IMG/VR virus record: IMGVR_UViG_3300025117_000038
Location: 1-64,000 of that record
Direction: 5' to 3' (one strand)
DNA from: a virus
Length of the DNA stretch: 64,000 nucleotides
Under the pieces are notes generated by a model, which made no database searches, was not told the DNA's origin, and saw only the letters and a list, made by a program, of their open reading frames with translations. The translations under genes and the position numbers were made by a program. Below, one piece after another: positions 4,883 through 45,798 of the stretch. Position 1 is the first letter of the stretch; each line of letters starts with the position of its first letter.

Positions 4883-6037
4883 ATGTATAAAATTTACAAC
4901 GCAATATCTTTAATCCCCGAAGAAGAAATTGAATTAAGTGCTTTAGAGCAGATTGCAAGAGTTTCAAAACATCCTTACTTGGACGCCCCGTTTATTATTC
5001 TCCCCGATGTTCACGCAGGTGAGGGGGCAACTATCGGGTCGGTTATTCCACTCATTAATTTTATTTCACCGAGCATGATTGGGTATGATATCGGATGTGG
5101 AATATGGTGTGAAAGACTTGACTTTGGACATGCTCCTTTTGATAACATCTCTCTTGCAAGATTGGAAGATTTTATCAGAACGAATATTCCACTGGGATTC
5201 AATCATCGTACAACCGTTGACGGTATTGGGGATTTTGTTTACAAAACAGGGCAAAGATTTATCAGTGAAACATTCGAAATAAACGAAAAATACAATCTCA
5301 ATGCATTACTCTCACTCGGTACTCTTGGCGGTGGGAATCATTTTATTGAACTTACCAGAGGAGATGATGGGTTTGTTTATCTATTAATTCATTCTGGGTC
5401 AAGAAATATCGGGCATCGTATTGCATCGGAGTATATGGAAAAAGCCAAAACTACGGCAGAATATACCAATGGGCTCATCCCAACTGGTTTAGGTGGGTTC
5501 TCCGAAGGCGATGATGATTATGATAATTACTATGAAGAATATCTTTATGCTACTTCTTTTGCTCATCAAAATAGAAACATCATGGCTAAATTGATTATTA
5601 ATTACATGGCTCAAGAAGGTTTAATCAGTGGTAGTTTGGGATGGATTGATACTCCACATAATTTTCTTCACGTCGATATTATTAACAGTCAAATAATTCA
5701 TTATAAAGGAGCCATTAATGCTTTTGATAGTGCTATCGTGGCCGGGTCAATGGGAACCAACAGTTATATAGTACAATCAACACCTGAAGCACAGAAAATT
5801 CATTGGGCATGTTCGCATGGTGCAGGTCGCAGATTTTCGAGAAAACAAGCTAAGGAGATTTTGTCGGTAGATGATTTTAAGAGGATGGTAAGAGATGTTT
5901 ATGGATGTCAAACTGACCAGAACCATATTGACGAGTCTCCTATGGCGTATAAAGATATCGAATATGTTATGGAATCGCAAGGAAAAACAATTGTCATTAA
6001 AACCAAGTTGACTCCATTTTTTAACATTAAGGGGTAA
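4883..6037 (+). CDS. rtcB: RtcB-type RNA-splicing ligase
   Basis: 384 residues. RtcB joins 2',3'-cyclic phosphate or 3'-phosphate RNA ends to 5'-OH ends using GTP and Mn2+. Visible family signatures: ILPDVHAGEGATIGSVIP and IGYDIGCG (metal-binding Asp, His and Cys), GTLGGGNHFIE (metal-binding His) and the guanylylation motif SHGAGR near residue 310. Shorter than the roughly 400-480 residues usual for bacterial RtcB but with all core motifs. GGAAAATATT precedes the ATG. In this genome the likely substrates are cleaved or interrupted tRNAs; that is inference from the tRNA array at 23-32 kb. Confidence 0.9.
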   Translation: MYKIYNAISLIPEEEIELSALEQIARVSKHPYLDAPFIILPDVHAGEGATIGSVIPLINFISPSMIGYDIGCGIWCERLDFGHAPFDNISLARLEDFIRTNIPLGFNHRTTVDGIGDFVYKTGQRFISETFEINEKYNLNALLSLGTLGGGNHFIELTRGDDGFVYLLIHSGSRNIGHRIASEYMEKAKTTAEYTNGLIPTGLGGFSEGDDDYDNYYEEYLYATSFAHQNRNIMAKLIINYMAQEGLISGSLGWIDTPHNFLHVDIINSQIIHYKGAINAFDSAIVAGSMGTNSYIVQSTPEAQKIHWACSHGAGRRFSRKQAKEILSVDDFKRMVRDVYGCQTDQNHIDESPMAYKDIEYVMESQGKTIVIKTKLTPFFNIKG

Positions 6038-9028: not shown

Positions 9029-9078
9029 CCAGAGACTGACGTTAAATAACATTATATATAATATTATATATAACATTT
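9029..9078. repeat. Cassette A: CCAGAGACTGACGTTA plus 22-bp AT palindrome
   Basis: CCAGAGACTGACGTTA is followed by a perfect 22-bp AT-only palindrome at 9052-9073. The same two elements occur in inverted orientation at 32410-32458. Both copies lie next to ACTTGACG octamers (9087-9094 here). It may be a phage control or recombination site; the function is not visible from sequence. Confidence 0.6.
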
Positions 9079-10746: not shown

Positions 10747-10762
10747 TGTTTCACGTGAAACA
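10747..10762. other. Perfect parS-like centromere site
   Basis: TGTTTCACGTGAAACA is identical to the chromosomal ParB-binding parS consensus of many bacteria. It is a fully symmetric 16-mer with the CACGTG centre. ParB binds such sites and spreads, and ParA then segregates the DNA. No parA or parB is visible in this window, so it may recruit host ParB or a partition protein encoded elsewhere in the phage. Confidence 0.75.
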
Positions 10763-10786: not shown

Positions 10787-10820
10787 ATACTAAAGAAGTG
10801 ATAACTTCTTTCGTTGTTCA
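10787..10820 (-). repeat. Free-standing copy of the 34-nt tRNA-inserted element
   Basis: Read on the minus strand it begins TGAACAACG and ends TTTAGTAT. It matches 30 of 34 positions of the block in the D-loop of tRNA-Tyr (25667-25700), and the preceding TTAG is shared too. It can form a 7-bp stem AAAGAAG/CTTCTTT; the outermost A-T pair is G-C in the tRNA copy, a paired change. It lies just beyond the minus-strand terminator. Confidence 0.7.
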
Positions 10821-10822
10821 CT

Positions 10823-10853
10823 AAAAAAAATCCCCTGTTTTTGGCAGGGGATT
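10823..10853 (-). terminator. Rho-independent terminator of the minus-strand four-gene operon
   Basis: AATCCCCTG and CAGGGGATT form a 9-bp stem around a 7-base loop (10829-10853). The A run at 10823-10830 is the T tract on the minus strand. It directly follows the last gene of the minus-strand set 11513-10873. Confidence 0.75.
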
Positions 10854-17900: not shown

Positions 17901-17933
17901 CCCTTCTCCTTTAGTGAACAACTGTCGAAGTTG

Positions 17934-18287
17934 TCACTTCTTCAGTATGGCGACGATTAACTCAAAGAGAGCATCGTCGGGGGTGTCAGCGTAAACTTCG
18001 ATATTGTCAAACGTCCCCGTTCCGGTTGACCACACATGATATTTATTTTGGCGCGGGTCAAAAGCAATCCCCAAATGATATTCTGGCCTCAATTCTCTTA
18101 CCCACGCTATCAGTTCCCCCGTCTGGGGGATGTGGATATAATGGTCAAATGCAAGTCCTTCCATTCCAATATTCAATATAGTTCCAACGGGTTCGTCCTC
18201 ATCATCGTAATACCAGTCACCAATATCCAGCGTCTGGTCTGCGCCCAGCTCTTTCAGCTTTACGCACTCTTCAAGACTTAGCATCAT
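17934..18287 (-). CDS. Conserved phage protein (LSLEECVKLKELG)
   Basis: 117 residues. Start at 18287 follows AAAAAGGAGAACA. The N-terminus LSLEECVKLKELG and the C-terminal IEVYADTPDDALFELIVAI match a phage family in which a substrate-like beta domain is followed by a TPxEAL helix; function unknown. Confidence 0.65.
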   Translation of the reverse strand: MMLSLEECVKLKELGADQTLDIGDWYYDDEDEPVGTILNIGMEGLAFDHYIHIPQTGELIAWVRELRPEYHLGIAFDPRQNKYHVWSTGTGTFDNIEVYADTPDDALFELIVAILKK

Positions 18288-20543: not shown

Positions 20544-21668
20544 TCAATGAAAATCAGTATTATTTTTTAACAATAAATACTCAGGATTTATATGTTTTAA
20601 GACCATTCTGCCACATCTTCCCGTTTTTTCTATTAGCGTTTTAATAACAATTCCTTCTTTAAGCGGTTGTTCCTTTGAAATTTCCGAACCCTTATTAAAA
20701 AATTCGTCTAACAACTCTGGGTTCCATGGTCCTATGTATAATGTATGAGGTAAAATAAAATCTACATTCATAACAATATTATCAATATCATAAAACATGT
20801 CTCCAAAATCACCATCACTTAAATAGTGTGGTTCTTCCCCGTTTTCATAAACCATAATATCAAAAACCATTAAACCTCTTTTGTTTTTCATTCCGTATGT
20901 ATATCCGTTTTGAATACCATCACCAAAAATTTCCCCATAGATTACACATCCCATGGGAATAGCTTTTTTCAAATTATATTTCTCTACCGCTTCTAAATAG
21001 ACATTATTCGAATAGTAATGTTTTCGACGATTTGAAAATAACTGTAACTGTACATTATGAGAGCCGAAGACAAACTCGTATTCAGGAAGAATGTTAAAGA
21101 ATTTTTTTATCTTTTTCCACCATGTATTCGCTATGGTTGGAACCCATCCGGCTCTAAAGTTGGTTCCATGTACTTTTTCGGTGATAACAACCATCTCCCC
21201 ATCAAAAATGTTAGGATAGTTTTTGATGTTCTCAATATCGGTATATTTTCTAAAGAGAGGATGGGTTTTTTTCTTGCTGACTTGGTATCCACCCTTCATG
21301 GTAATAGAGACAGTCGGTTCAAATTTAGTAATACCCAGAGTTTTAGTTACATCAATCCCCTCTTCTCTGGTTGTGATTTGAACCGTATCCAAGTCAACTA
21401 AGATTCCCTGAGAAATAACACCCCTGAGTTTGATTGTCCTGACTCTACCTTTATCCAACTTTATTTTGGCATTGCCAAGGATTTTTTCTTCCAACTCAGG
21501 GGTGAGAATGGCATCAATCGGGATATAGACAGCAATATCTCCCGATTTGAATTGCCCCTTTCCAACAATACAAACCCATCCTCTTATATAAGCCACTTCC
21601 AAACGGTCGGCATTCGGATGTGGTTCGATTCTATCGATTGAGACTGTTTCTACTTTAAGTGTTGACAT
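20544..21668 (-). CDS. ATP-dependent RNA ligase, DRB0094-like
   Basis: 374 residues. The N-terminal domain (IEPHPNADRLEVAYIRGW ... GDIAVYIPIDAILTPEL) matches the OB-like domain of the Deinococcus DRB0094 RNA ligase family. The ligase core has nucleotidyl-transfer motif I ITEKVHGTNFRAG (nucleophile Lys), FGSHN, VIYGEIFGDGIQ, LMVFDIMV, EGIVIK and MVLKHINPEYL. Seals 3'-OH/5'-P RNA breaks, complementary to RtcB chemistry. An AGGATG precedes the ATG. Confidence high for RNA ligase, moderate for the subfamily. Confidence 0.85.
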   Translation of the reverse strand: MSTLKVETVSIDRIEPHPNADRLEVAYIRGWVCIVGKGQFKSGDIAVYIPIDAILTPELEEKILGNAKIKLDKGRVRTIKLRGVISQGILVDLDTVQITTREEGIDVTKTLGITKFEPTVSITMKGGYQVSKKKTHPLFRKYTDIENIKNYPNIFDGEMVVITEKVHGTNFRAGWVPTIANTWWKKIKKFFNILPEYEFVFGSHNVQLQLFSNRRKHYYSNNVYLEAVEKYNLKKAIPMGCVIYGEIFGDGIQNGYTYGMKNKRGLMVFDIMVYENGEEPHYLSDGDFGDMFYDIDNIVMNVDFILPHTLYIGPWNPELLDEFFNKGSEISKEQPLKEGIVIKTLIEKTGRCGRMVLKHINPEYLLLKNNTDFH

Positions 21669-24745: not shown

Positions 24746-24752
24746 AATTTTG

Positions 24753-24863
24753 TTTCCCCAACAGAACTTGAACCCGTAGTCGATGGATTAGTAAACAAAT
24801 TTTAATTTATTAATACTTATGCAATTAGAAATCCATTACTTTATCCAATTGAGTTATGAGGAA
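24753..24863 (-). tRNA. tRNA-Arg(UCU) interrupted by about 37 nt in the anticodon loop
   Basis: Acceptor TTCCTCA/TGGGGAA, D-arm with AATTGGAT, and T-arm ACGGG-TTCAAGT-TCTGT are all present. The anticodon stem ATGGA/TCCAT is intact but the loop reads TTTCTAA, then about 37 AT-rich bases ending TTTACTAA. Removing these gives ATGGA-TTTCTAA-TCCAT, a normal UCU anticodon arm. The block is bordered by CTAAT direct repeats. It is far too short for a group I intron. Its end abuts the stop of the macro-domain gene. Confidence 0.7.
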
Positions 24864-25391
24864 TTATATTGATATAATATAAAATCTATTGTCCATCCCT
24901 ATATATTTGTCTAAAAGACCTAAAACACTATTCCACGAAAGTTCCCCATTTCCACAACCTGGTCTTGGGATAATTATTTTTTTCCATTCATTTATGTCGG
25001 CTAAATAAATAATCTGCCTTAAAGACCTTTCTATAATTTCTAAAGTAGCTTTAGCAGCCCAACCTGGAACTATATCACCACATTGGAATTTATCAGCCAT
25101 GTGTTTTACCACATTGCTTTTATCTTCATAACAAATAGTTTGTCTTGGTTTTACTGGAAAAGAATAAATAGAATATTTATTATATTTAATAAGTGGAAAA
25201 ACGCTATTCCCAAAAAGAGAAATTCCCTGTCCCAAAATAGCCTCAAGATTTTGTCCCGGATATAATTTAACGGCTTGTTTGGCTACTCCCCTACCCATAA
25301 CCCCATTTCCATTGGCTTTTACGAATCCATTAGTTGTGACACAAATTACATCGGCTTTTTGTTGAAAAATATTTCCAGAAATAAGATGCAT
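24864..25391 (-). CDS. Macro domain protein
   Basis: 175 residues from MHLISGNIFQQ; AAGGAATGG precedes the start. DVICVTTNGFVKANGNGVMGRGVAKQA is the ADP-ribose-binding signature (VTTNG, GVMGRGVA), and a later PRPGCGNGELSW supplies the GCG.G loop. Macro domains bind or remove ADP-ribose. In a phage this could reverse ADP-ribosylation or sequester nucleotide signals made by host defences; that part is inference. Confidence 0.8.
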   Translation of the reverse strand: MHLISGNIFQQKADVICVTTNGFVKANGNGVMGRGVAKQAVKLYPGQNLEAILGQGISLFGNSVFPLIKYNKYSIYSFPVKPRQTICYEDKSNVVKHMADKFQCGDIVPGWAAKATLEIIERSLRQIIYLADINEWKKIIIPRPGCGNGELSWNSVLGLLDKYIGMDNRFYIISI

Positions 25392-25411
25392 TTTCCATTC
25401 CTTTATAAAAG

Positions 25412-25589: not shown

Positions 25590-25634
25590 AATGACAGGAG
25601 AAGGATTTGAACCTCCGAAGCTTGCGCGACAGAT

Positions 25635-25650
25635 TTACTGAAGTAATTCA
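25635..25650 (-). repeat. 16-nt block in the tRNA-Tyr anticodon loop
   Basis: TGAATTACTTCAGTAA on the minus strand. It shares its first four and last nine bases with the 34-nt D-loop block, as if an internal deletion derivative. With its flank ACTGTAAT it can fold into a stem with a three-base bulge. Confidence 0.65.
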
Positions 25651-25666
25651 TTACAGTCTGTTGCCA

Positions 25667-25700
25667 TTACTGAAGAGGTGATAACTTCTTCCGTTGTTCA
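25667..25700 (-). repeat. 34-nt block in the tRNA-Tyr D-loop
   Basis: Begins TGAACAACGG and ends CTCTTCAGTAA. It matches 30 of 34 positions of the free copy at 10787-10820. Contains a GAAGA/TCTTC stem in which one pair differs from the free copy by a compensating change. Confidence 0.7.
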
Positions 25701-25739
25701 CTAACCACTCGGCCATCCTGTCTAATTCTTATTTATTTG

Positions 25740-25903
25740 AGCAAAGTGGCAGGACTCGAACCTGCAAAAGGACTTTCTTGGTGGCATTTATTAGTTCCTC
25801 GGCCTTAAGGAATCCTTGCGGACGGCTTAGAGCAAGTAAGCCTACATCGCCACATCGCCGGTATTTCAACTTATCATAGCGTTTACATTCCGCCACACTT
25901 TGC
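25740..25903 (-). tRNA. tRNA-Leu-like gene with about 75 extra bases
   Basis: Acceptor GCAAAGT/ACTTTGC (8 bp with the next pair), D-region GTGGCGGAATGTAAACGC as in tRNA-Leu, and T-arm GCAGG-TTCGAGT-CCTGC. Total about 163 nt. The centre folds as separate hairpins: GGCTTA/TAAGCC, GTCC-GCAA-GGAT and TTCCT/AGGAA, enclosed by GTGGC/GCCAC. I cannot place a confident anticodon, so the amino acid is provisional. Confidence 0.5.
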
Positions 25904-25920
25904 TTTTTTAGGAAACAGAA

Positions 25921-25998: not shown

Positions 25999-26023
25999 TA
26001 ACCTGCTCCACCACGAATTTTTT

Positions 26024-26126
26024 GGCAAAGTCTCAACAGATTCGAACTGTTCATGCAACCAGCACTATCCCGGATTCGAACCGGATGGGGTAGCTAACCC
26101 TCTTCGACCATCTCGTTGACTTTGCC
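26024..26126 (-). tRNA. Composite tRNA-like locus with two T-arms
   Basis: Acceptor halves GGCAAAGTC/GACTTTGCC pair over nine bases. Inside are a D-like hairpin CGA-GATGG-TCG, an arm GGG-TTAGCTA-CCC, a T-arm TCCGG-TTCGAAT-CCGGGA and a second T-arm AACAG-TTCGAAT-CTGTT. A normal tRNA has one T-arm, so this is either a fusion of two tRNAs or a tRNA with a T-arm-like insertion. It starts directly at promoter site b. Confidence 0.45.
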
Positions 26127-26140
26127 TATATATTATACGC
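26126..26140 (-). promoter_or_regulatory. Promoter motif GCGTATAATATATAG (site b)
   Basis: TATAAT occupies 26132-26137 on the minus strand, seven bases before the 5' end of the composite tRNA-like locus, which is the expected distance to a transcription start. Confidence 0.5.
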
Positions 26141-27273: not shown

Positions 27274-27477
27274 TTATTTCCTTATTATATCCAATTCATC
27301 ACAAAAAATTATTGAAATTGCATTATTAATATCTCCCCCCATCCGAGTATAATCATCACCGCCATCAATAAATAAATTTTTACATTTGCACCATCTAAAA
27401 TCATGTCGGTAAAATGAAAAAATTCTATCGTGACATTTGGGACATTCTATTCCATATTTAATGGGTTTATTTAACAT
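27274..27477 (-). CDS. DUF7695-like zinc-binding protein
   Basis: 67 residues. ECPKCHDRIFS, then RHDFRWCKC and FIDGGDDYTRMGG form a compact conserved pattern seen in many phage and bacterial small proteins with a predicted zinc site (two Cys pairs, one His). Function unknown. Confidence 0.7.
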   Translation of the reverse strand: MLNKPIKYGIECPKCHDRIFSFYRHDFRWCKCKNLFIDGGDDYTRMGGDINNAISIIFCDELDIIRK

Positions 27478-28061
27478 TATTGCCTCAAATCATAAGTATA
27501 AATATGTTTTCCTAAAGTATCTAAATAATATGCAACACCCAATTTAAGCATACTCTTTAGTTTTTCTGCAAATGGTTTTAGTTTCCCTTTATATTTTGTT
27601 CTAATGGCTTTATCGTGAAAAGTTTGTCCATTAAAGCGAATTACTTTTCCTGGTTTTGTCATTCCAAGGTATTTAAAATTAGAGGCCTTATAAATAGTCC
27701 CTACATGACCATAAGTAGCATCAGCATATGAAATAACCATTTTAATGTTCGTGTTTTTTTGGAGCCATTTTAAAGTCTTTCCTATAAAATAACTTTCAGT
27801 ATTTCGCGGGGTATTATCAATACAACATAACCTTCTTAATTCAATTATATCTTCCTGTTTATTAACATATCTTTTCCATACATTAGCCATTGCTATTTTA
27901 CCATATACCATGGCTCCTATTAAAGCATCTCCATCATATAAGCCAAAACAATAATCACTAATAATACCATTCATATTATGGGAATAATGCCACAACTCTA
28001 TAAAATTAGAAATTTCTTTTCTAGTACATGGCTTAACTGTGTATGTCCTAACCTTTCCCAT
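27477..28061 (-). CDS. Mom-like acetyltransferase-fold DNA modification protein
   Basis: 194 residues from MGKVRTYTVKP. The core FGLYDGDALIGAMVYGK, IELRRLCCIDNTPRNTESYF, VISYADATYGHVGTIYKASN and FKYLG match the Mom family (GNAT fold), which adds a carbamoylmethyl-type modification to adenine in phage Mu and protects DNA from restriction. Start at 28061 avoids running into tRNA-Asp. An anti-restriction role is inference. Confidence 0.7.
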   Translation of the reverse strand: MGKVRTYTVKPCTRKEISNFIELWHYSHNMNGIISDYCFGLYDGDALIGAMVYGKIAMANVWKRYVNKQEDIIELRRLCCIDNTPRNTESYFIGKTLKWLQKNTNIKMVISYADATYGHVGTIYKASNFKYLGMTKPGKVIRFNGQTFHDKAIRTKYKGKLKPFAEKLKSMLKLGVAYYLDTLGKHIYTYDLRQ

Positions 28062-28089
28062 AAATACCCTTTTAATAAAAAATTTTAAA

Positions 28090-28156
28090 CGGGAGCAACG
28101 GGATTCGACCCCCTGACGTGACAGGCCAGTGGTTGTATCCATTTAACTATGCCCCC
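28090..28156 (-). tRNA. tRNA-Asp(GUC) lacking a variable loop
   Basis: Acceptor GGGGGCA/TGCTCCC; anticodon arm CTGGC-CTGTCAC-GTCAG; T-loop GTCGAAT. Only 67 nt: the anticodon stem runs straight into the T-arm, so the variable region and one T-stem pair are gone. Probably a deletion derivative with doubtful function. Confidence 0.6.
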
Positions 28157-30290: not shown

Positions 30291-30363
30291 TATTGGGAGA
30301 GGGATTCGAACCCTCACTGGATAGGGTCTAAGCCTATTGCCTCTACCGTTGGGCTACCCCAAT
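30291..30363 (-). tRNA. tRNA-Leu(UAG) with a short variable loop
   Basis: Acceptor ATTGGGG/TCCCAAT; anticodon arm ATAGG-CTTAGAC-CCTAT; variable region CCAGT only; T-arm GAGGG-TTCGAAT-CCCTC. Its D-arm (TAGCCCAACGGTAGAGGC) is nearly identical to that of the UAA tRNA at 24080. Confidence 0.75.
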
Positions 30364-31173
30364 AATATCTCCAATGTTACTTGACCCAAAACTAAACTGT
30401 AGTCCATTTCCATGGTGACACATGCTTGCCACCATTTGCAATAAAGAATCAGCCTTTTTATAATCAATCTTAGATGGTAAAACTGATTTTTCTCTTATAT
30501 TTTGTAAATCACTGAATCCATTTTCGGCCAACTCTTTTACTTCTTCCAATGAATATTTCCCCTCTTTGATATCCATTAAAAATTGATGGTCATTATCTCT
30601 AAAAATTTTAACTTTTCCGGTTTCAAGAATTTCTTTTCCCATTGTTAGCAAACGGACTAAATGAGAGGCATTCTTCGTATCGTAGCCATATCTTTCAACA
30701 AGAGCCTTTCTTTTTTCTCCCATATATCCCTCTCTATGGCCGTGTTGCATTTTTTGTAATTGAGAGTAGGCATATCCACTAAAAGCCTGATAAATTCCAT
30801 CAGTATAAAGGAACTCTTCTCTGTGGTCAATTAATATTTGCCCTGCTACTGTAATTGTTTTATAAAATTCTCTTTCATTCCATAACAAAGAAAATATATT
30901 AGGGTTACATTTCATTAACAATCGAAAAAACTTTTTTACCTCATACGAAACGATGTCATTGGGGTTATCTTTTGTTGGCAATTGTTCATATTGTTCTATT
31001 TTATTTAATCCATAATAATAAGATACCGGAGCCGAAAATACCCCAATCCAATCAATATCGTCAATACCATGCTCATCCATTGAGGGTTTATAAAGTCCAT
31101 GAGCAATACTTCCCCTTAAACAATACAACAAGTGTCTTTGCCCAATTTCTTCTTCTAATTTTGAGTCTATCAT
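30343..31173 (-). CDS. RlaP-like nucleotidyltransferase (RNA repair)
   Basis: 276 residues. RGSIAHGLYKPSMDEHGIDD followed by IDWIGVF shows the polymerase-beta superfamily G-S ... D-x-D metal motif, and SYYYGLNKIEQYE plus YEVKKFFRLLMKCNPN are typical of the RlaP clade. RlaP proteins are predicted to work beside RNA ligases in RNA repair or end processing. Transcribed from promoter site d; its stop overlaps tRNA-Leu(UAG). Exact reaction unknown. Confidence 0.7.
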   Translation of the reverse strand: MIDSKLEEEIGQRHLLYCLRGSIAHGLYKPSMDEHGIDDIDWIGVFSAPVSYYYGLNKIEQYEQLPTKDNPNDIVSYEVKKFFRLLMKCNPNIFSLLWNEREFYKTITVAGQILIDHREEFLYTDGIYQAFSGYAYSQLQKMQHGHREGYMGEKRKALVERYGYDTKNASHLVRLLTMGKEILETGKVKIFRDNDHQFLMDIKEGKYSLEEVKELAENGFSDLQNIREKSVLPSKIDYKKADSLLQMVASMCHHGNGLQFSFGSSNIGDIIGVAQR

Positions 31174-31824: not shown

Positions 31825-31923
31825 GGGGCTAAATGGTGTCGATTTGGGTGTTGTGACTCTTTGGGAGTTTGCCTGACAAGGCGGTAACACCCGAAGACCT
31901 CGGTTCGATTCCGAGTAGCTCCA
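31825..31923 (+). tRNA. Plus-strand tRNA (Asn-like) with about 30 extra bases in the anticodon loop
   Basis: Begins on the base after the barrel gene's stop. Acceptor GGGGCTA/TAGCTCC, T-arm CTCGG-TTCGATT-CCGAG, discriminator A. The stem GGGTG/CACCC encloses 37 bases starting TTGT and ending TAA; removing 30 would leave TTGTTAA, anticodon GUU (Asn), although other cuts would give GUG or GGU. The D-arm is short and irregular. Identity is provisional. Confidence 0.5.
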
Positions 31924-31930
31924 TTTTATT

Positions 31931-32135: not shown

Positions 32136-32411
32136 ATGGATTTAACACAATTAGTACCAGTCATTATTTCGTTTTTATCTGGCCCCGTTATTGCCCCTAT
32201 CGCGGAATGGATTAAATCAAAAATTCCAGAGGGGTCGCCGCTAAAAACTTTGGGAGTTGTCTCTATTTTGAACGCTTGTGTTGTAGTAATTCTAATGCTT
32301 AGTTTTGGTTTAGAACTAAACCTTTTGAATATTTTATCTCTTGCTTTTGGAACAAGCTCAACTGCCCAATTATCGCATGTTATTAAAAAGAATGTGGCAG
32401 AGAAAGAATAA
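32136..32411 (+). CDS. Holin-like membrane protein
   Basis: 91 residues: LVPVIISFLSGPVIAPIAEW and a second segment VVSILNACVVVILMLSFGLE, then a short soluble end with a KEK tail. Size and two-helix layout resemble phage holins. TTAGGAG precedes the ATG. Confidence 0.5.
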   Translation: MDLTQLVPVIISFLSGPVIAPIAEWIKSKIPEGSPLKTLGVVSILNACVVVILMLSFGLELNLLNILSLAFGTSSTAQLSHVIKKNVAEKE

Positions 32412-32458
32412 CGTTATATATAATATTATATATAACATTAATTAACGTCAGTCTCTGG
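32410..32458. repeat. Cassette B: inverted copy of the 9.03 kb cassette
   Basis: The same 22-bp palindrome (32414-32435) followed by TAACGTCAGTCTCTGG (32443-32458), the reverse complement of the flank at 9029-9044. Two CGTCAAGT octamers follow at 32492 and 32512. Bases 32459-32693 hold no gene that I can support. Confidence 0.6.
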
Positions 32459-42849: not shown

Positions 42850-45798
42850 ATGGTAAGTAATAACGCACTCGAAATTCTTGAGAGAAGATATTTTTTCAAG
42901 GATAAAGATGGTCATATAATTGAAGATTTTGAAAAAATGTGCAAGAGAATCGCGAAGTTCGTTGCACAGAGAGAAAATAAAGATACTGAATTTACAAAAG
43001 AATATTATTTTGATAAATATTTTGACGTTTTATATAATTTGCGATTTGTCCCCAATAGTCCGACTCTTATGAATGCTGGAAGAAAAAACGGGCAGTTATC
43101 TGGGTGTTTTGTATTGGGTATCGAAGATAACATAGAAAGTATTTTAGATATACAGAAATACGCAGCTTTAATTCACAAGAGTGGTGGAGGTACTGGATTT
43201 TCATTTTCTAAATTACGTCCTGCCAATTCTATTGTCGGTGGAACCAATGGTGTTTCCAGTGGCCCTATTTCTTTTATGAAAATGTATAGTGCAACTACAG
43301 AAGCAATTAAACAAGGTGGAACGAGGCGTGGGTCCAACATGGGTATCTTGCGAGTTGACCACCCGAATATTTTAGAATTCATAGATTGCAAACAAGATAC
43401 AACTCAATTAAATAATTTCAATATTTCCGTTGCTATTACCGATGTTTTTATGGAAGCTGTTAAGAAAAATAAAAAATATGATTTAATTGACCCAAGAACA
43501 GACCTTCCGTATATAGATGTTGTTACCGGAAAGATTCAGCAACTAAATGCAAGGGAAGTTTTTGAAAAAATAGTAAACAATGCTCATGCGACCGGAGAAC
43601 CGGGGGTATTTTTTATTGATACTGCAAATAAAGCCCATCCTGATATAACAAAAACAGTTTTGGGTGACGAAAAAATAGAGTCAACTAATCCATGTATTAC
43701 AGGAGATACATTAATAGCTACCTTAAATGGAAATATTCCCATAAGAGATTTGGTTGGGAAAGAGCCAGTTTTAGTTTATACGTGGAATCCAAAGACTAAA
43801 TTACCTGAATTGTCTTATTTAAATAATACAAGAATAACCGATAAGAATGCCAAAATTATTAAAATAACATTTGATTCTGGTCTTGAGCTAAAGTGTACTT
43901 ATAATCACAATCTATTTACATTTCGTGGAGATAAAGTACAGGCTAAAGATTTAAAGATTGGGCAATCAATAAGAGCTTTTAGTGTCTCCTCTCATAGGGA
44001 TGGACACATTAGAATGCATGGTTGGGTTAATGGTAAGACAAAACATATTTGGGTGCATAGATTTTTGTGGGAATTATGTAATAATAAAAAGGTACCTAAG
44101 GGGTATGTGGTTCATCATATAAATGGGAATCCCAGTGACAATAGAATTGATAATTTAGAGTTGTTGCCCGAATACAAACATCAATCAATTCACTATCCAG
44201 AGAGAATGAAAAATGGTTTTAATTCTATTGGTGTCAACAAAAGCATTGAATGCGGTAAGAAGATTTCGGAATCATTAAAAAAATATTATACCAACAAAAC
44301 ATCAGAAACAATCAAGAATCATAAAATTATTGATATTCAAGATATGGGATATGATGCTGTTTACAATGCTACCGTTGAGAATACCCATACTTATATTATA
44401 GCTGATTCGTGTTATTGTGGTAAATGTGAGAACGGATTAATGAGTGGTATCGTTTCTGCAAATTGCGGAGAACAGCCCTTGCTTAACTTTGAATCATGTA
44501 ATCTTGGTAGCATTAATCTTGGAAAGTACTATAGCGAATCTAAAAATAGTATTGATTATGATTTGCTAAATAATGATATAAAAATTGCCACACATTTTCT
44601 GGATGCCATCATTGATTTAAATGAATTCCCACTGGATATTATAAAAAAGAAAACCCTAATGACTCGAAAGATAGGCTTGGGAATTATGGGTTTTGCTGAC
44701 TTACTTATAAAAATGGGGATTCCTTATGGTTCTTCGGAGTCTTATAAAATAGCCGAAAGTATCTCTAAAATATTAAGGGACGTTTCGAGAGAAGAGAGTG
44801 TAAATCTTGGTAAGATATATGGGGTTCCCGAAGTATCGGTAGATAGACGAAGGAATTTATGTACTACAACCATTGCTCCTACTGGTACTATTGCAATTAT
44901 AGCCGACGCCTCACATGGGTGTGAACCTATCTTTTCTGTGGGATATATGCGGTCATTAGCGGATGGTGGAAAAATGGAAGTCTTTCATCCTCTTTTTGTG
45001 GAGGCTATGGAAAAGAGGGGCATAAAAATAACACAAAAAATGAAAGATGATATTTTTGGTTCATTAAGTTTAAAAGATATCGAAGGTATCCCCGATGATG
45101 TTAAGAGAATTTTTATAACATCAAATGATTTAAATTATGAACAACACGTAAAAATTCAAGCATCGTTTCAAAAGTACGTTGATTCTGGGATAAGCAAAAC
45201 CATTAATATGCCCAAAGAAACTCCCGTAGGTGATATATACAAAGCTTTTATGATGGCTTATGACAGTAGTTGTAAGGGAATTACTGTATATCGATATGGT
45301 TCAAGACAAAATCAAGTTCTTACTAAAAAGTCAGATGAAAAAGAAACAAAAACAAGAAACAGAAAAAAAATTACCTATGGTTCTACAGAAAAGATACAAA
45401 CTCTTTTAGGAAAATTATATATTACAATAAATTCCAATAAACAAGGAGAGGAGCCTATTGAATTGTTTTTGAGATTGGGGAAAACGGGGACTACAATAAA
45501 TTCTTTTACAGATGCGGTTGGAAGATTAGTATCACTCTGTCTTAAGAGAAAAATACTCCCAAAAGATGTTGCCAAAGCATTGGTTGGTATTAAGAGTGAG
45601 GATACTGGATTTGATGGTGGAATAAAATATACTTCTATTCCAGATTTGGTTGGTAAGAAGCTATCTCAAAATGGGTTTAGTGAAGAGGGTGATAACGATG
45701 ATGATTCACAGGAAATAGCAGTATGTCCTAAATGTGATACCAAATTAATGATGACCGAGGGGTGCATGTCTTGTGTTTGTGGATATTCTAAATGTTAG
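42850..45798 (+). CDS. nrdJ: Class II (adenosylcobalamin) ribonucleotide reductase with intein
   Basis: 982 residues, 725 without the intein. FVPNSPTLMNAG, SGCFVL, HKSGGGTGFSFSKLRP, the active-site NP|CGEQPLLN and ESCNLGSINL, and ATIAPTGTI-like TTIAPTGTIAIIAD are RNR signatures. The C-terminus has CPKCDTKLM and SCVCGYSKC, the zinc and redox tail typical of NrdJ. Reduces ribonucleotides for phage DNA synthesis without a separate small subunit. An extein split lies exactly in the catalytic motif. Confidence 0.9.
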   Translation: MVSNNALEILERRYFFKDKDGHIIEDFEKMCKRIAKFVAQRENKDTEFTKEYYFDKYFDVLYNLRFVPNSPTLMNAGRKNGQLSGCFVLGIEDNIESILDIQKYAALIHKSGGGTGFSFSKLRPANSIVGGTNGVSSGPISFMKMYSATTEAIKQGGTRRGSNMGILRVDHPNILEFIDCKQDTTQLNNFNISVAITDVFMEAVKKNKKYDLIDPRTDLPYIDVVTGKIQQLNAREVFEKIVNNAHATGEPGVFFIDTANKAHPDITKTVLGDEKIESTNPCITGDTLIATLNGNIPIRDLVGKEPVLVYTWNPKTKLPELSYLNNTRITDKNAKIIKITFDSGLELKCTYNHNLFTFRGDKVQAKDLKIGQSIRAFSVSSHRDGHIRMHGWVNGKTKHIWVHRFLWELCNNKKVPKGYVVHHINGNPSDNRIDNLELLPEYKHQSIHYPERMKNGFNSIGVNKSIECGKKISESLKKYYTNKTSETIKNHKIIDIQDMGYDAVYNATVENTHTYIIADSCYCGKCENGLMSGIVSANCGEQPLLNFESCNLGSINLGKYYSESKNSIDYDLLNNDIKIATHFLDAIIDLNEFPLDIIKKKTLMTRKIGLGIMGFADLLIKMGIPYGSSESYKIAESISKILRDVSREESVNLGKIYGVPEVSVDRRRNLCTTTIAPTGTIAIIADASHGCEPIFSVGYMRSLADGGKMEVFHPLFVEAMEKRGIKITQKMKDDIFGSLSLKDIEGIPDDVKRIFITSNDLNYEQHVKIQASFQKYVDSGISKTINMPKETPVGDIYKAFMMAYDSSCKGITVYRYGSRQNQVLTKKSDEKETKTRNRKKITYGSTEKIQTLLGKLYITINSNKQGEEPIELFLRLGKTGTTINSFTDAVGRLVSLCLKRKILPKDVAKALVGIKSEDTGFDGGIKYTSIPDLVGKKLSQNGFSEEGDNDDDSQEIAVCPKCDTKLMMTEGCMSCVCGYSKC
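43693..44463 (+). mobile_element. Intein with HNH homing endonuclease in nrdJ
   Basis: 257 residues (282-538 of the precursor). Starts CITGDTLIATLNG (block A Cys1), has block B-like LKCTYNHNLFTF (T-x2-H variant), an HNH domain (HIWVHRFLWELC; YVVHHINGNPSDNRIDNLEL) and a C-terminal splice region YNATVENTHTYIIAD ... GIVSAN before Cys+1. The penultimate residue is Ala instead of His, and a CYCGKCENG insertion lies near the C-terminus. Confidence 0.9.

What the first reader, a model, noticed from the sequence alone, without database searches (positions are those of the whole stretch)
10787..10820. Free-standing copy of the tRNA-Tyr D-loop element 15 kb away
30 of 34 positions match 25667-25700, plus the same TTAG before it. 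One stem position differs by a paired change (A-T versus G-C), which argues that the hairpin itself is under selection. A dispersed copy supports a mobile or guide-like element rather than random tRNA decay. It lies just past a terminator and 25 bases from the parS-like site.
Basis: seen in the sequence. Interest (0 to 1): 0.75.

Follow-up and report, generated by a model that had tools for sequence, protein, structure and literature searches.

The report
Four-copy palindromic repeat in a phage
A 38-letter, nearly palindromic DNA repeat occurs exactly four times in this phage genome, three times near or between genes and once inside the D-loop of an otherwise intact tyrosine tRNA gene, so it behaves like a tiny dispersed (probably mobile) element and not like tRNA decay.

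Summary
The 30/34 match is far above chance, and the repeat extends to 38 nt with four copies in the circular ~117 kb phage: 10787-10824, 17911-17948, 25667-25704 (D-loop of tRNA-Tyr) and G000:113174-113211. Each scores 49-53 bits; nothing else in the genome exceeds 17.2, and shuffles reach at most 21. No copy was found in the viral or bacterial genome collections, phage and plasmid records, or the nearest relative found.

It is an imperfect dyad, AGTGANAAC-N7-GTTGTTCACT, paired in all four copies, with variation concentrated in its centre.

Removing 34 nt from the D-loop and 16 nt from the anticodon loop restores a canonical tRNA-Tyr, so both are insertions, each abutting a TA. Best explanation: a very small non-autonomous palindromic dispersed element (like REP or mitochondrial hairpin elements in behaviour) inserted at TA. 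No integrase, Y1 transposase or resolvase was detected, so the mobilising step is inferred. Main rival: a protein-binding site. "Mobile" is supported but unproved; "guide-like" has no support.

The parts
10787..10824 (+). copy 1 (the finding, extended to 38 nt): ATACTAAAGAAGTGATAACTTCTTTCGTTGTTCACTAA, between a parS-like site and a terminator-like hairpin
   Evidence: PWM 49.4 bits; covariance model 61.0 bits
17911..17948 (-). copy 2: ATACTGAAGAAGTGACAACTTCGACAGTTGTTCACTAA; supplies the last codons and stop (ILKK*) of the minus-strand ORF ending at 17934 and abuts the ribosome-binding site of the next gene (ATG at about 17900)
25667..25704 (+). copy 3: TTACTGAAGAGGTGATAACTTCTTCCGTTGTTCACTAA, inside the D-loop of the minus-strand tRNA-Tyr gene (34-nt insertion; the outermost bases are shared with the tRNA)
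25596..25722 (-). tRNA-Tyr(GTA) gene (limits approximate) interrupted by the 34-nt D-loop insert and a 16-nt anticodon-loop insert; canonical when both are removed
   Evidence: not detected by ARAGORN or Rfam as it stands
25636..25653 (+). 16-nt anticodon-loop insert with its flanking TA (TACTGAAGTAATTCATTA); its TACTGAAG end is identical to that of the element; possible short relative
   Evidence: similarity of the whole insert is not significant
10797..10822 (.). conserved dyad AGTGANAAC-N7-GTTGTTCACT in the free copy (same dyad in all four copies)
10747..10762 (.). neighbour: perfect 16-bp parS-like palindrome TGTTTCACGTGAAACA, the only one in the genome
   Evidence: no ParB_N family protein in the phage

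Best explanation
A very small (32 nt plus flanking TA; 38 nt as aligned), non-autonomous, imperfectly palindromic dispersed element. Shown: four copies in one circular phage genome, both strands, conserved arms with a variable centre, and one copy lying as an insertion in the D-loop of an otherwise intact tRNA-Tyr gene. Inferred: the copies arose by copying or transposition into TA dinucleotides, through a hairpin or dyad intermediate recognised by a host enzyme or by template switching during phage replication. The element then persists where it does least harm: gene ends, next to terminators, and the length-variable part of the D-loop.
For: Four and only four copies, 49-53 bits against at most 17.2 for any other site and at most 20.8 in 60 shuffles (covariance model 60-62 bits against 17.7). 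Removing exactly 34 nt from the D-loop and 16 nt from the anticodon loop gives the top ARAGORN score of 3,139 double deletions tried (116.6, tRNA-Tyr(gta)) with all stems paired, so these are insertions into an intact gene. Each tRNA-Tyr insert abuts TA on both sides while the joined site has one. Variation sits in five contiguous central columns (p = 0.007) and spares the dyad stem (p = 0.034). All four copies have TA at both ends. The relative G001 (TerL 64-65% identical) has ordinary, uninterrupted tRNAs and no copy.
Against: No tyrosine integrase, Y1 transposase or serine resolvase in the phage; other transposase families were not searched. No empty site in a close relative could be found for the non-tRNA copies (sought for the gene at copy 2; G001 lacks the flanking genes). 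TA at both ends could simply be part of a conserved site. Four copies is few for a mobile family. The arm-conserved, centre-variable pattern fits a protein-binding site equally well.
Confidence: 0.55

Rival explanations
1. A cis-acting DNA site: an operator, replication or partition-like site bound by a dimeric phage or host protein, spread to several control points. The copy in the tRNA gene would be a by-product of recombination.
For: Perfectly conserved dyad arms with a variable spacer; three of four copies lie in intergenic or gene-end positions, one 24 bp from a perfect parS-like site; all copies lie in one ~30 kb arc of the circular genome.
Against: The arms differ by one base in length in every copy, unusual for a dimer site; a copy inside a tRNA D-loop makes little regulatory sense; orientation and distance to genes differ at each copy; no ParB_N protein in the phage. 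No search of operator collections was possible.
Confidence: 0.25
2. An RNA-level element: a hairpin acting in transcripts (processing site, stability element or tRNA intron-like insert). The tRNA-Tyr inserts would be removed from the precursor by nuclease cleavage and sealed by the phage RtcB and/or DRB0094-type RNA ligase.
For: Phage encodes RtcB (PF01139, E 3.5e-72), an RNA ligase over the TIGR02306 cut-off, and RlaP. tRNA exons are intact; an anticodon-loop insert sits at or next to the classic 37/38 intron site, and at least two other tRNAs have anticodon-loop inserts.
Against: No archaeal-type splicing endonuclease domain (PF01974) in the phage. Three copies are not in tRNAs. The strand transcribed differs between copies (one sense inside the tRNA, the other in the gene-end copies). 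The relative G001 has an RtcB homologue although its tRNAs are uninterrupted.
Confidence: 0.12
3. Chance similarity or random tRNA decay.
For: None beyond the small number of copies.
Against: Shuffle controls and four high-scoring copies with no intermediates; canonical tRNA recovered on removing the inserts.
Confidence: 0.01

Closest known systems
Repetitive hairpin-forming elements / double hairpin elements of mitochondrial genomes (PMC2800124)
   Same: Very short palindromic dispersed repeats, mostly intergenic, some inserted in RNA genes at tolerant places; suspected mobility
   Different: Mitochondrial; the passages read describe insertion in a ribosomal RNA gene, not in a tRNA D-loop; no sequence relationship tested or expected
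REP sequences mobilised by TnpA-REP (RAYT), PMC3733652, PMC8266576
   Same: 20-40 bp imperfect palindromes, extragenic, thought to be non-autonomous transposable elements
   Different: REPs carry a GTAG or CGTC tag and occur in high copy in bacterial chromosomes; no Y1 transposase in this phage; four copies only; TTAG, not GTAG, at the end
Small dispersed repeats of cyanobacteria (from memory, not read here)
   Same: About 21-27 bp repeats inserted into hairpin loops of RNA genes and between genes
   Different: Cellular genomes; no sequence comparison made
Archaeal protein-spliced tRNA introns (PMC4090602, abstract only)
   Same: Short inserts in tRNA genes with intact exons, one of them at the canonical position next to the anticodon; an RtcB ligase is present
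   Different: Bacteriophage; no splicing endonuclease domain; free-standing copies outside tRNAs; bulge-helix-bulge not demonstrated

Membership tests
REP / RAYT system | GTAG/CGTC-type tag at the foot of the palindrome | tested here: not met
   Ends are TTAG.../...CTAA and TWACT.../...AGTAW in all copies
REP / RAYT system | Y1 (HUH) transposase TnpA-REP in the genome | tested here: not met
   PF01797: no match in the phage; host genome unknown
REP / RAYT system | 20-40 bp imperfect palindrome, dispersed | tested here: met
   38 nt, dyad paired in 4 of 4 copies
Repetitive hairpin-forming elements (RHE) | Short hairpin-forming repeat in several intergenic copies, sometimes inside RNA genes | tested here: met
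Repetitive hairpin-forming elements (RHE) | Presence/absence variation between related genomes | tested here: inconclusive
   The relative G001 lacks the repeat but also lacks tRNA-Tyr and homologues of the genes flanking the other copies
TA-target DNA transposon derivative (IS630/Tc1-mariner MITE type) | TA target-site duplication and terminal inverted repeats | tested here: inconclusive
   TA at both ends of all copies and of both tRNA-Tyr inserts; inverted NTGAA ends in three of four copies; no empty sites for the non-tRNA copies; transposase family not searched
Protein-spliced (archaeal-type) tRNA intron | Splicing endonuclease EndA | tested here: not met
   PF01974: no match in the phage
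Protein-spliced (archaeal-type) tRNA intron | Removal of the insert from the tRNA precursor | not testable with these tools
   Needs RNA data from infected cells
Site-specific recombination (att) site | Cognate tyrosine or serine recombinase | tested here: not met
   PF00589 and PF00239: no match in the phage
Known structured RNA family | Rfam match | tested here: not met
   No Rfam match at any copy

The most novel reading that the evidence does not exclude
The element is a mobile mini-intron: a phage-borne family of 16-38 nt inserts that invades tRNA genes and intergenic DNA, and that is removed from tRNA precursors by a protein pathway using the phage's own RtcB or DRB0094-type ligase, so that an interrupted phage tRNA-Tyr is functional.
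Probability: 0.08. Interest if true: 0.88.

Novelty: new variant of a known kind. Interest (0 to 1): 0.47.

Why it matters
Very short dispersed palindromes are known from bacteria and mitochondria, but I know of none described in a phage, and an insertion in the D-loop of an otherwise intact phage tRNA is unusual. It gives a small, clean system (four copies, one with a defined empty site) for asking how such tiny elements move. Because the same phage carries RtcB, a second RNA ligase and several tRNAs with extra loops, it also makes it directly testable whether phages can use interrupted tRNAs.

Tried and rejected
Pattern scans of viral contigs and genome contigs found no copies elsewhere; blastn in phages and plasmids gave only partial, non-significant hits. 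TerL relatives: G001 useful, the others too distant; the DNA polymerase query found none. Homologues of the gene at copy 2, sought for an empty site, were not found. The idea that all anticodon-loop inserts belong to the same family is only suggestive: local similarity is mostly not significant (p 0.04-0.19). Ends anchored at TA match 7 of 8 for Tyr and Arg (about 0.3% of TA sites do so by chance), but the length and anchor were chosen after looking, and the reading of the Arg insert is ambiguous (35 nt gives an amber anticodon with a higher score). Resolving the odd tRNA-like genes at 25735-25910, 26015-26135 and G000:116820-116990 by single deletions failed, because arbitrary deletions score nearly as well. 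Recombination site, REP and archaeal-intron membership failed on missing enzymes.

Full report
The observation. Positions 10787-10820 match 25667-25700 at 30 of 34 positions, and the best match to the tRNA copy in 60 Markov shuffles of the window was 25. The match extends to 38 nt (10787-10824 and 25667-25704, 34/38). The window belongs to a virus record of 117,395 bases. Bases 14-139 repeat exactly at 117270-117395, so it is most likely a complete circular or terminally redundant genome. Two more copies exist: 17911-17948, and 113174-113211 of the record. A position weight matrix gives 49.4-52.9 bits for the four copies, at most 17.2 for anything else (an element read on its other strand), and at most 20.8 in 60 whole-genome shuffles. 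A covariance model gives 60-62 bits against 17.7 for the next match. So the family has exactly four members here, without intermediates.

What is conserved. Written in one orientation the copies are TTACTGAAGAGGTGATAACTTCTTCCGTTGTTCACTAA (tRNA-Tyr), ATACTAAAGAAGTGATAACTTCTTTCGTTGTTCACTAA (the finding), ATACTGAAGAAGTGACAACTTCGACAGTTGTTCACTAA (17911) and TTACTGAAGAAGTGAAAACTTATTCAGTTGTTCACTAA (113174). A second, overlapping dyad, AGTGANAAC-N7-GTTGTTCACT, is paired in every copy (100%), but its pairs hardly vary, so this is conservation and not covariation. The nine variable columns include a run of five at the centre of this dyad (p = 0.007 for a run of five or more), and only one falls in its stem (p = 0.034). 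The pattern is conserved arms and a free centre.

Where the copies lie. The finding lies between a perfect parS-like palindrome (10747-10762, the only one in the genome) and a terminator-like hairpin. Copy 17911 supplies the last codons and stop of a minus-strand ORF and touches the ribosome-binding site of the next gene. Copy 113174 lies between the stop of a RuvB-like gene and an evident terminator hairpin on the same strand (sequence; gene). The fourth copy is inside tRNA-Tyr, where the transcribed strand is the opposite one. All four lie in one arc of about 30 kb of the circle.

The tRNA. As it stands the tRNA-Tyr gene is not recognised by ARAGORN or Rfam. Deleting 34 nt from the D-loop and 16 nt from the anticodon loop gives a tRNA-Tyr(gta) with all stems paired. 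Among 3,139 placements of a 34- and a 16-nt deletion, those at the two inserts score highest. Thus the body of the tRNA is intact and the two stretches are insertions. Both inserts abut TA at each end, where the joined site has a single TA. The D-loop insert sits in the part of the loop that naturally varies in length (general knowledge of tRNA structure). The 16-nt insert begins with the same TACTGAAG as the element. Similarity of the other tRNA inserts to the element as a whole is mostly not significant; their TA-anchored ends are suggestively similar, with a choice made after looking.

Distribution. No further copy was found in 2.9 million viral contigs or in genome contigs, by exact patterns, which would miss diverged copies. 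None was found in GenBank phages or plasmids. The nearest relative found, G001 (58 kb, TerL 64-65% identical), has twelve ordinary tRNAs, no tRNA-Tyr and no copy.

Mechanism. The best reading is a very small non-autonomous palindromic dispersed element. Shown: number, conservation, insertion into an intact tRNA. Inferred: movement, TA as target, and the agent. No integrase, Y1 transposase or resolvase was found in the phage, so a host enzyme or template switching in phage replication would have to do the copying. The main rival is a DNA-binding site for a dimeric protein, which accounts for the conserved arms but not for the tRNA copy. An RNA-level reading, with inserts spliced out of tRNA-Tyr, is encouraged by the phage's RtcB, DRB0094-type RNA ligase and RlaP and by intact exons. 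It is weakened by the lack of a splicing endonuclease, the free-standing copies, and the presence of RtcB in the relative with uninterrupted tRNAs.

Known kinds. It works like the repetitive hairpin-forming elements of mitochondrial genomes (PMC2800124) and like REP sequences (PMC3733652, PMC8266576; abstracts). It is not a member of the REP/RAYT system on the features tested (no GTAG/CGTC tag, no Y1 transposase). I therefore call it a new variant of a known kind.

Noticed in passing
24752-24863 (-): tRNA with a 35-37 nt anticodon-loop insert ending TTTGTTTACTAA; becomes tRNA-Arg(TCT) if 37 nt are removed, or an amber-anticodon (CTA) tRNA if 35 are removed.
   Followed up: partly
G000:116496-116593 (+), L009: tRNA-Glu(TTC)-like gene with a 25-nt anticodon-loop insert forming the hairpin GTTTGTTCACTCAAAC.
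   Followed up: partly
25735-25910 (-), 26015-26135 (-), G000:116826-116986 (+): Three tRNA-like genes with large extra segments (the second has two T-arm-like hairpins); not resolved into canonical tRNAs.
   Followed up: partly
4883-6037, 20544-21668, 30343-31173, 24864-25400: Phage RNA repair set: RtcB, RNA ligase of the DRB0094 type, RlaP, and a macro-domain protein, in a phage with several interrupted tRNAs.
   Followed up: partly
31825-31926 (+): Rfam tmRNA match over the full model in only 102 nt: the tRNA-like part with almost no mRNA-like region.
   Followed up: no
10747-10762: Single perfect parS-type site in a phage without a ParB_N protein; might capture host ParB.
   Followed up: partly
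9029-9077 and 32410-32458: A second dispersed inverted repeat, 49 nt, 92% alike, containing its own AT-rich palindrome.
   Followed up: no
42850-45798: Ribonucleotide reductase large subunit with an HNH-type segment (residues about 375-455) inside it, perhaps an intein or in-frame homing endonuclease.
   Followed up: no
27477-28142 (-): Mom-like DNA modification protein.
   Followed up: no
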